Below, piece by piece: positions 61 through 1,808 of a stretch of 36,611 nucleotides of DNA (positions within the stretch are counted from its first letter, which is position 1; each line of letters begins with the position of its first letter). This DNA comes from Dehalococcoidia bacterium. Its GTDB lineage: Bacteria > Chloroflexota > Dehalococcoidia > Lucifugimonadales > Lucifugimonadaceae. The translations under genes were made by a program, and so were the position numbers. The notes under the pieces were generated by a model. It worked only from the letters and a program-made list of their open reading frames with translations. It was not told the origin of the DNA and ran no database searches. The stretch lies in the NCBI GenBank assembly GCA_029936155.1, contig JAPYUK010000017.1, positions 1 through 36,611 on the forward strand, read 5' to 3'.

Positions 61-564
61 TTAGACTTCCGCCATCTCAAGCTCTTTTGTTATGTCGATG
101 CTGGTGTAGATGCTGCGGTAGACCGGGCATGAGTCGGCATGTAGATCGAAGGCGCGCTGTATGGCGTCATTCTTTTCGGCGTGAAGTGCTGCGTCGACCT
201 TCAGGTGGTAGACGACGTGTATCCGCTTGATAACCAAGATGTTGTTCTCTTTTTCGAGTTCACCAACAGTCTCTGAGTGAAGAAAACCGTCACCGGCAGG
301 AATCCCGCGAGCCTCAAGGGCACCGCCAAATGTTCCGGTCATTCAGCCGGCGGCAGCGGCGACGATGTAGTCGAGAGTAGTCGTGTATGGATCGACGACG
401 TTGTTGTCTACTCCGTAGTGCTCAGCCACTTCGGAGTGAACACCCAGCATAACGGGTCCATCGTGTGCCGGAACGAACGCCCTTCGAATCGGGCCTTTGA
501 CCCGCTCGATGCGGACATGAGACCGGTATGCGATCGGATCGTTGGTTTCTACGTTATCTGGCAA
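61..564 (-). CDS. OsmC-family peroxide/thiol protein, probable selenoprotein (in-frame TGA at 343-345)
   Basis: Two minus-strand reading frames, 564-346 and 342-61, are in the same phase and separated only by one TGA. Read through, they give 167 residues, the usual size of an OsmC/Ohr-family protein. These proteins reduce organic peroxides with two cysteines. The N-terminal part ends TLDYIVAAAAG, then the TGA codon (residue 74), then MTGTFGGALEARGI. This aligns with the OsmC segment carrying the first catalytic Cys (AAHAACFSMAL in E. coli OsmC). The second catalytic Cys is present in HADSCPVYRS (Cys146). The start is TTG at 562-564, preceded by GAGGAG with 8 bases between GGAG and TTG. The rest of the frame is undamaged. 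Sec-containing OsmC-like proteins are known from marine metagenome surveys, so Sec is more likely than a nonsense mutation, but no sel genes are in the window to confirm decoding. Confidence 0.82.
292..339 (-). promoter_or_regulatory. candidate bacterial SECIS hairpin downstream of the UGA
   Basis: On the minus strand, counting U of UGA as 1, bases 20-23 (GCGG) can pair with 36-39 (UCGC, one G-U pair). U24 is bulged, 25-27 (GCC) pair with 33-35 (GGC), and the apical loop is CUUGA. An outer stem ACCGG (7-11) pairs with CCGGU (50-54). The bulged U three pairs below the loop copies the layout of the E. coli fdhF SECIS. The loop has a G, but not in its first two positions as the usual bacterial consensus asks. 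The fold was drawn by hand, without an energy calculation. Confidence 0.45.
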
Positions 565-773
565 ATCAAGAGCTCCTCGTGAATATTCCCAAACAGGCTA
601 CAGCAGTTCCACGTCATGCTGAACTTGATTGAAGTACTCGCCTCCGACAATTCTCTCTCGGAGTAAACGTGTTCCTGTAATCAGCAATCTACTAGCAACT
701 ATAAGGGCATTGGGTTCTTCGTCCCCAATGGCTGTTTTTTCGCGGCCAGTTCGTTGGTTACGCCTGTCTATTT
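565..773. other. intergenic stretch with a repeat half-copy
   Basis: This gap lies between the mannonate dehydratase and the OsmC-like gene. At 613-636 it carries GTCATGCTGAACTTGATTGA, matching one arm of the dispersed TGTCATnCTGA repeats seen elsewhere in the window. At 708-730 CATTGGG and CCCAATG can form a 7-bp hairpin with a 9-base loop, followed on the plus strand by a T run at 735-740. There is no plus-strand gene upstream for it to terminate. No coding capacity is convincing. Confidence 0.4.
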
Positions 774-1808
774 TTACTGAACAGCTGCAGTCTTGTGCCG
801 TCCTGCTCCCTTGGTTACCCATGCCTGTTTGCGTGGTTCGTTGATGCCTTGCAGAAGTGCTGAAATGTAGCCGTAGCAGAACGCAAACGCTGTTCCCTGT
901 GCGTCGTCACCGCTGATCCACGGAACGTGGTCCGGCATCAGCATGTACTTGTACCCGACCTCCTGGTAGACCTTGATGATCTCCGAAAAATCGATCGAAC
1001 CCTCGTCCGGGAACGATTCCATGAAGTCTAGTTTGTGTCCGCGGATGTTTCGGAAGTGAACGTTGAAAATCTTGTTGCGTGAACCGAACCACCGAATCAC
1101 GTCGGCAATCTCAGCACCCGGATCGTCGAGCATCTCGGTAACCGTGCCCTGGCAGAAGTTCAGACCGTGGTAGTCGCTCTCGTGCATCATCACAAACTTC
1201 TTCATGCCTTCGATAGTCCCAAGCACCCGGGTCACGCCCATGTAGCCATCTGGTGTGTACGGATCGTGCGGGTGGCATGCCATTCGCACTTTCGACGATT
1301 CGGCAACCGGAACAGTTCGTTCGAGGAAGTAGTTGATTCGCTCCCAGAACTCGTCGACAGTCACATCACCAGCGATAGTTTTTGGATTGTCCGGGTTCAT
1401 CTTCGCCCAACGGAATGTCGAGTTCGACGCCCCACCACGGCCTTCCTCACGCTCGGAGCGGGGTATGCCGATGATGTTCATGTTGTACTTAACCGCCGGG
1501 ATGCCGACTTCGCCACACATGCGAATGATGTTCTGGATCGAGTCGATCTCGCGGTCACGCTCAGGGCTTTTTCCGAGCATGACATGCGGAGATTGCGACG
1601 TGTTCAGCGTCGACGAAGAAAGTGGAATCTGAACCATATCGAGCTCGATTCCGTAAGAGTTGACCTTGTCCTTGTGACGCTGCAGATCGTCCTTCGTCCA
1701 GCTATGCGGATCGCCTGGTGGATCGGAGCAGATGTTTACCACGCCAAGTTGCGCCCACTGCTCAAAGTCTGAATCGTTCCTTGCTGCGACCTGCGTTCCG
1801 ACGTACAT
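774..1808 (-). CDS. uxuA: mannonate dehydratase family protein (UxuA-like)
   Basis: The 344-residue product is a TIM-barrel enzyme of the UxuA family, which removes water from D-mannonate to give 2-keto-3-deoxygluconate in hexuronate breakdown. The four metal-ligand motifs of characterised UxuA proteins are all recognisable: His179 in MACHPHDP, Cys219 in GLNFCQGT, His251 in NVHFRNIRG and Asp293 in LMPDHVP. It is shorter than the E. coli enzyme (394 residues) but complete. The ATG start is preceded by GGAGG with 8 bases of spacing. No other hexuronate genes adjoin it. An HpcH/HpaI aldolase and an enolase-superfamily gene lie elsewhere in the window. The family is clear, but the exact substrate could be another aldonate. 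Confidence 0.85.
   Translation of the reverse strand: MYVGTQVAARNDSDFEQWAQLGVVNICSDPPGDPHSWTKDDLQRHKDKVNSYGIELDMVQIPLSSSTLNTSQSPHVMLGKSPERDREIDSIQNIIRMCGEVGIPAVKYNMNIIGIPRSEREEGRGGASNSTFRWAKMNPDNPKTIAGDVTVDEFWERINYFLERTVPVAESSKVRMACHPHDPYTPDGYMGVTRVLGTIEGMKKFVMMHESDYHGLNFCQGTVTEMLDDPGAEIADVIRWFGSRNKIFNVHFRNIRGHKLDFMESFPDEGSIDFSEIIKVYQEVGYKYMLMPDHVPWISGDDAQGTAFAFCYGYISALLQGINEPRKQAWVTKGAGRHKTAAVQ

What the first reader, a model, noticed from the sequence alone, without database searches (positions are those of the whole stretch)
61..564. OsmC-family gene with TGA exactly at the first catalytic cysteine: probable selenoprotein
The two halves are in the same frame, split only by TGA where OsmC has its first catalytic Cys (AAAAG-stop-MTGTFGG). 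The second Cys (Cys146), the ribosome-binding site and the whole downstream frame are intact. A random nonsense mutation could fall on any codon; this one falls on the residue most often replaced by Sec. OsmC-like selenoproteins are known from marine metagenomes. An ordinary gene caller would report two short ORFs or miss it.
Basis: partly seen in the sequence, partly recalled or inferred. Interest (0 to 1): 0.85.

Follow-up and report, generated by a model that had tools for sequence, protein, structure and literature searches.

The report
OsmC-type selenoprotein with selenocysteine active site
A small stress-defence enzyme gene in a marine SAR202-type bacterium has a 'stop' codon that is almost certainly read as selenocysteine at the catalytic site, and its relatives in several bacterial phyla use selenocysteine there almost without exception, although standard gene callers would split the gene in two.

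Summary
On the minus strand (window 564-61) one reading frame encodes an OsmC-family protein interrupted only by TGA (345-343), at the column of OsmC's first catalytic cysteine. It is a real selenoprotein gene, not a pseudogene. Of 110 non-redundant homologues covering the column, 108 have TGA, one has TGC (Cys) and one TGG. They come from Chloroflexota, Actinomycetota, Acidobacteriota and other phyla. Synonymous codon variation collapses in codons +2 to +16 after TGA (observed/expected about 0.3, against 0.8-1.0 elsewhere) and a hairpin forms there, the expected signature of a bacterial SECIS element. The lone Cys homologue has lost the hairpin. The source genome (near Ca. Lucifugimonas marina) encodes SelA and SelB. 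Its tRNA-Sec is cut by a contig end, and the selD region is missing from the 89%-complete assembly but present in congeners. The predicted fold is OsmC (PDB 2onf, Z 14.3). Most likely function (inferred): a Sec-based peroxidase with Cys146 as the resolving residue. OsmC-like selenoproteins have been known since 2005, listed with motif UxxT. This subfamily has UxxGT, is almost exclusively Sec-containing and has no NCBIfam model. A few relatives carry decayed copies; this one is intact.

The parts
61..564 (-). OsmC-family selenoprotein gene, 167 residues with Sec at residue 74; TTG start, TAA stop
573..578 (-). ribosome-binding site GAGGAG, 8 nt before TTG
   Evidence: sequence
343..345 (-). in-frame TGA = Sec codon (residue 74) at the catalytic Cys column
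   Evidence: 108 of 110 homologues TGA
307..326 (-). predicted bacterial SECIS hairpin GCGG-U-GCC-[CUUGA]-GGC-UCGC, loop about 24-28 nt after the UGA
   Evidence: folds; conserved pairs; synonymous codon freeze
127..129 (-). Cys146, invariant; probable resolving residue
   Evidence: invariant in 45-row alignment; aligned with the second Cys of OsmC structures

Best explanation
The gene encodes a selenoprotein. SelB-bound Sec-tRNA reads UGA 345-343 as selenocysteine, directed by a hairpin just downstream in the coding sequence. The protein folds as an OsmC subunit with Sec74 in the catalytic position on the central helix and Cys146 as its partner. Shown (computationally): conservation of UGA, the constrained hairpin region, the OsmC fold, the Sec machinery in the genome or its close relatives. 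Inferred: Sec74 attacks a (probably organic) hydroperoxide, becomes a selenenic acid, is resolved by Cys146 as a selenenylsulfide, and is reduced again by a dithiol such as dihydrolipoyl or thioredoxin. I put about 0.97 on Sec insertion and about 0.6 on peroxide reduction as the physiological reaction; the confidence below is for the selenoprotein claim with an OsmC-type redox active site.
For: UGA at the same column in 108/110 non-redundant genes at 34-89% identity. Downstream frame intact, Cys146 and flanking motifs invariant. Synonymous variation in codons +2..+16 is 0.26-0.30 of expectation in the genus and 0.13-0.29 in Rubrobacter, against 0.8-1.0 over most of the gene. A hairpin lies at a similar distance in the groups examined. 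The single Cys homologue (L176) and the TGG one (L177) have lost the clean hairpin. SelA and SelB are over cut-off in the own genome. All 25 relatives with an OsmC match have SelB over cut-off, and the five relatives lacking SelA, SelB and SelD (G022, G023, G024, G032, G033) lack this gene. tRNA-Sec 3' end at a contig end in the syntenic place. AlphaFold model pLDDT 86.5; the best PDB matches are all OsmC/Ohr/YhfA proteins, Z 14.3 to 2onf_A.
Against: A complete selC and any selD are not in the source assembly, explained by gaps. The own gene's hairpin is not unusually stable against dinucleotide shuffles (z -0.39); against synonymous codon shuffles the genus mean z is -1.87. The loop in this genus (CUUGA) lacks the G in the first two loop positions that most other members show (GGA). 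The Glu of Ohr ten residues before the catalytic Cys is Leu here, with an invariant Asp one residue on, so peroxidase chemistry is not assured.
Confidence: 0.95

Rival explanations
1. Pseudogene: a chance nonsense mutation in an OsmC gene.
For: Some congeners have truly decayed copies: G007 internal deletion and G008 truncated with two TAA; G177 scrambled.
Against: The same codon is TGA in 108/110 genes across phyla with the frame otherwise intact, and the downstream region is under strong synonymous constraint. Decayed copies look different.
Confidence: 0.01
2. UGA is read as another amino acid (reassigned code or suppressor), not Sec.
For: One relative has TGG (Trp) at the site (L177).
Against: Five long ORFs of the window end in TGA. 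Ordinary OsmC paralogues show no in-frame TGA. The Sec machinery co-occurs. The natural non-TGA form with an intact gene is Cys (L176). The TGG copy is truncated at the 5' end.
Confidence: 0.01
3. It is a selenoprotein but not a peroxidase: a YhfA-type OsmC relative with another thiol-redox task, such as disulfide or selenenylsulfide exchange, or persulfide handling.
For: The acidic residue sits at C-9, not at C-10 as in Ohr (Glu51/Cys61 in PMC5962072). NCBIfam OsmC and SACOL1771 models score far below cut-off. 1ml8, which I know as E. coli YhfA, ranks second in fold comparison. A review files OsmC-like selenoproteins under COG1765 YhfA (PMC9312934).
Against: The catalytic pair and an invariant Arg (R27) upstream are kept. 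Ohr/OsmC peroxidases are nearly as close in fold.
Confidence: 0.35

Closest known systems
OsmC-like selenoprotein of the Sargasso Sea and GOS surveys (PMC1088965, PMC2398784; listed as COG1765/PF02566, motif UxxT)
   Same: OsmC family, Sec in place of the catalytic Cys, bacterial SECIS, marine origin.
   Different: Those are listed with UxxT and with more Cys than Sec sequences (3 Sec and 5 Sec sequences in the two surveys). Here the motif is UxxGT (G at +3, T at +4) and Sec forms outnumber Cys forms 108 to 1. The published alignment figure is not held, so identity with that family could not be tested.
OsmC / Ohr peroxidases (E. coli OsmC 1nye, X. fastidiosa Ohr)
   Same: Fold, two redox residues in the same places, upstream conserved Arg.
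   Different: Cys is replaced by Sec; the Glu at C-10 of Ohr is Leu, with Asp at C-9; about 7-18% identity in fold alignments.
Thermoplasma Ta0195 (2onf) and E. coli YhfA (1ml8)
   Same: Best structural matches (Z 14.3 and 13.8); the Cys pair of 2onf aligns.
   Different: Cys enzymes or proteins of unknown function, not selenoproteins as far as I know; about 16-18% identity.

Membership tests
Bacterial selenoprotein | In-frame UGA at a redox residue, conserved in homologues | tested here: met
   108/110 non-redundant genes, one Cys form
[quoted passage not shown]
   Hairpin and synonymous freeze. Loop GGA in most; CUUGA in this genus, where the G is the fourth loop base; hairpin energy of the own gene is not exceptional
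Bacterial selenoprotein | SelA, SelB and tRNA-Sec (SelC) in the organism | tested here: met
   SelA and SelB complete; selC as a 28-nt 3' end at a contig end in the syntenic place
Bacterial selenoprotein | SelD in the organism | tested here: inconclusive
   No SelD over cut-off in the 89%-complete assembly; its 9-kb region is absent there but present in 6/6 congeners tested, and 17 of the 18 other genomes of the genus have SelD
Bacterial selenoprotein | Sec found in the protein | not testable with these tools
   needs mass spectrometry or 75Se labelling
OsmC superfamily (PF02566) | Match over the curated cut-off and OsmC fold | tested here: met
   39.2 bits vs 27.5; Z 14.3 to 2onf
Ohr peroxidase | Glu at C-10 before the catalytic Cys, salt-bridged to Arg | tested here: not met
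   Invariant Leu64 at -10 and Asp65 at -9 (Glu51/Cys61 from PMC5962072)
TIGR03562 OsmC peroxiredoxin | Score over 85.8 bits | tested here: not met
   22.5 bits
OsmC-like selenoprotein, UxxT form | Thr three residues after Sec | tested here: not met
   Gly77 at +3 and Thr78 at +4 invariant in 45 rows; motif from PMC1088965 Table 3

The most novel reading that the evidence does not exclude
This is a separate, old OsmC subfamily that depends almost entirely on Sec (108 Sec to 1 Cys, from SAR202 to Rubrobacter and Acidobacteriota), unlike most bacterial selenoproteins, whose Cys forms are far more common. It is distinct from the UxxT OsmC-like family and was overlooked because Cys/Sec-pair searches require common Cys homologues.
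Probability: 0.5. Interest if true: 0.6.

Novelty: new variant of a known kind. Interest (0 to 1): 0.45.

Why it matters
Bacterial selenoproteins are usually rare variants of common Cys enzymes (stated in PMC1088965 and PMC13188914). A subfamily that is kept as Sec in lineages of several phyla suggests a reaction that Cys cannot do well, and gives a natural Sec/Cys pair (L176) for testing this. It also marks a selenium demand in SAR202, an abundant deep-ocean group (own knowledge), and a gene that standard annotation splits: NCBIfam has no model that reaches its cut-off.

Tried and rejected
Pseudogene, rejected: conserved TGA, intact frame, synonymous constraint. Codon reassignment, rejected: TGA ends five long ORFs in the window and ordinary OsmC paralogues have no TGA. 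Other selenoproteins in the window: the only other single-TGA read-through frames lie antisense to or over longer genes. Rfam found nothing in the window at gathering thresholds. The best SelD-model match in the own genome (92.9 bits, cut-off 125) has counterparts in relatives that also have a true Sec-containing SelD, so it is taken as a paralogue. The 52-bit tRNA-Sec match in the own genome is tRNA-Ser GCT. phmmer against the PDB with the single protein gave nothing. A first attempt at the SECIS entropy script failed on an N codon and was repeated. Neighbouring genes (UxuA-like, carbohydrate kinase and others) gave no functional clue.

Full report
OBSERVATION. The gene lies on the minus strand at window 564-61, at the very start of contig C10 of the source assembly. 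It starts with TTG (564-562) behind GAGGAG, has TGA at 345-343 and ends with TAA at 63-61. A normal ORF list shows two pieces, 73 and 93 aa. Read through, it gives one OsmC-family protein (PF02566, 39.2 bits against a cut-off of 27.5), and the TGA falls on the catalytic Cys of OsmC proteins of known structure.

CONSERVATION OF TGA. In 60 related genomes, 25 have a match. Every match that covers the site has TGA, and none has Cys. A scan of genome contigs gave 72 loci in Chloroflexota (Dehalococcoidia/SAR202, Caldilineaceae, Anaerolineales), Rubrobacteraceae, Solirubrobacterales, Acidimicrobiia, Qaidamihabitans, Acidobacteriota and others (names are the records' own; most are MAGs, so single odd placements may be binning errors). 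The site is TGA in all that cover it. The search patterns did not include that codon. A profile search of 400 Chloroflexota genomes found 40 with a match. Together, 110 non-redundant genes cover the column: 108 TGA, 1 TGC, 1 TGG. As a control, the general OsmC family is found in 345 of 400 genomes of the phylum, and the 150 best matches listed have no internal stop.

SECIS. After the TGA the nucleotide sequence is frozen beyond what the protein requires. In the genus, observed/expected codon entropy is 0.30 for codons 0 to +11 and 0.26 for +6 to +17, against about 0.8-1.0 over the rest of the gene. In Rubrobacter it is 0.13 and 0.29 (there the last codons of the gene are also low, on few sites). 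In Caldilineaceae the contrast is weaker (0.27-0.28 against about 0.45-0.75), probably because those sequences are close relatives. The frozen stretch folds into a hairpin whose loop is about 24-28 nt after the UGA: GCGCGCU-GGA-AGCGCGC in most groups, and GCGG-U-GCC-CUUGA-GGC-UCGC with a bulged U in this genus. Within the genus the hairpin is more stable than synonymous shuffles (mean z -1.87, 11 of 12 below -1), less clearly in other groups (mean z -0.74). The own gene alone is not unusual against dinucleotide shuffles. The one Cys gene (L176) keeps the protein motif but not the hairpin.

MACHINERY. SelA (C81) and SelB (C54) are complete in the source genome. tRNA-Sec did not score there (the match is tRNA-Ser). 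However, contig C46 ends with 28 nt that match the 3' end of the congeners' tRNA-Sec in 27 of 28 positions, next to the same neighbouring DNA, and contig C22 continues on the other side. The 9 kb around selD of the complete congener genome has no match in the source assembly but has matches in all six other congeners tested. Congener SelD proteins are themselves Sec-containing. All 25 OsmC-positive relatives have SelB over cut-off; one of them (G026, 86% complete) lacks SelA over cut-off. The five relatives lacking SelA, SelB and SelD also lack this gene.

STRUCTURE AND MECHANISM. AlphaFold on the 45-row alignment gives pLDDT 86.5. The best PDB matches are all OsmC/Ohr/YhfA proteins, led by 2onf_A (Z 14.3, rmsd 2.5, 139 residues). 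Sec74 and Cys146 occupy the places of the peroxidatic and resolving Cys. In Ohr the peroxidatic Cys61 works with Arg19 and Glu51, and Cys125 resolves (PMC5962072). Here Arg27 is invariant, but the position ten before Sec is Leu and nine before is Asp, so the closest subtype may be YhfA-like. A Sec-based peroxidase is the best guess, not shown.

KNOWN AND NEW. OsmC-like selenoproteins were listed in 2005 (3 sequences) and 2008 (5 sequences) with motif UxxT (PMC1088965, PMC2398784) and remain in recent reviews (PMC9312934, PMC13188914). The present subfamily has UxxGT, is almost wholly Sec, and has no NCBIfam model over cut-off. The 2005 method required at least two Cys homologues for each candidate (PMC1088965), which could have hidden such a family. 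I could not compare with the published sequences, so whether it is the same clade stays open.

DECAY. Copies in G007 and G008 are broken and G009 has none; G177 holds a scrambled copy. The gene is therefore dispensable in some lineages; the window copy shows no damage.

Noticed in passing
L142 (G007), L143 (G008), L190 (G177): Decayed copies of the same gene: an internal deletion, a truncation with two TAA, and scattered fragments on either side of about 2 kb.
   Followed up: yes
L176 (G433) and L177 (G358): The only non-TGA forms: a Cys version (TGC) without the hairpin, and a 5'-truncated copy with TGG at the site and a damaged hairpin.
   Followed up: partly
window 8279, 8370, 19077, 19181, 32250, 35640; L152 7420-7445: Short interspersed palindromic repeat, about 26 bp (TGTCATTCTGAACTTGATTCAGAATC), several copies in the window and one just upstream of the OsmC gene in a congener.
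   Followed up: partly
L152 3133-5291 against window 777-1808: A UxuA-like sugar-acid dehydratase upstream of the OsmC gene is present as two tandem paralogues in the congener and as one copy in the window.
   Followed up: no
L144-L150: Selenophosphate synthetase of the relatives is itself a selenoprotein (motif CAGU), with its own hairpin after the UGA.
   Followed up: partly
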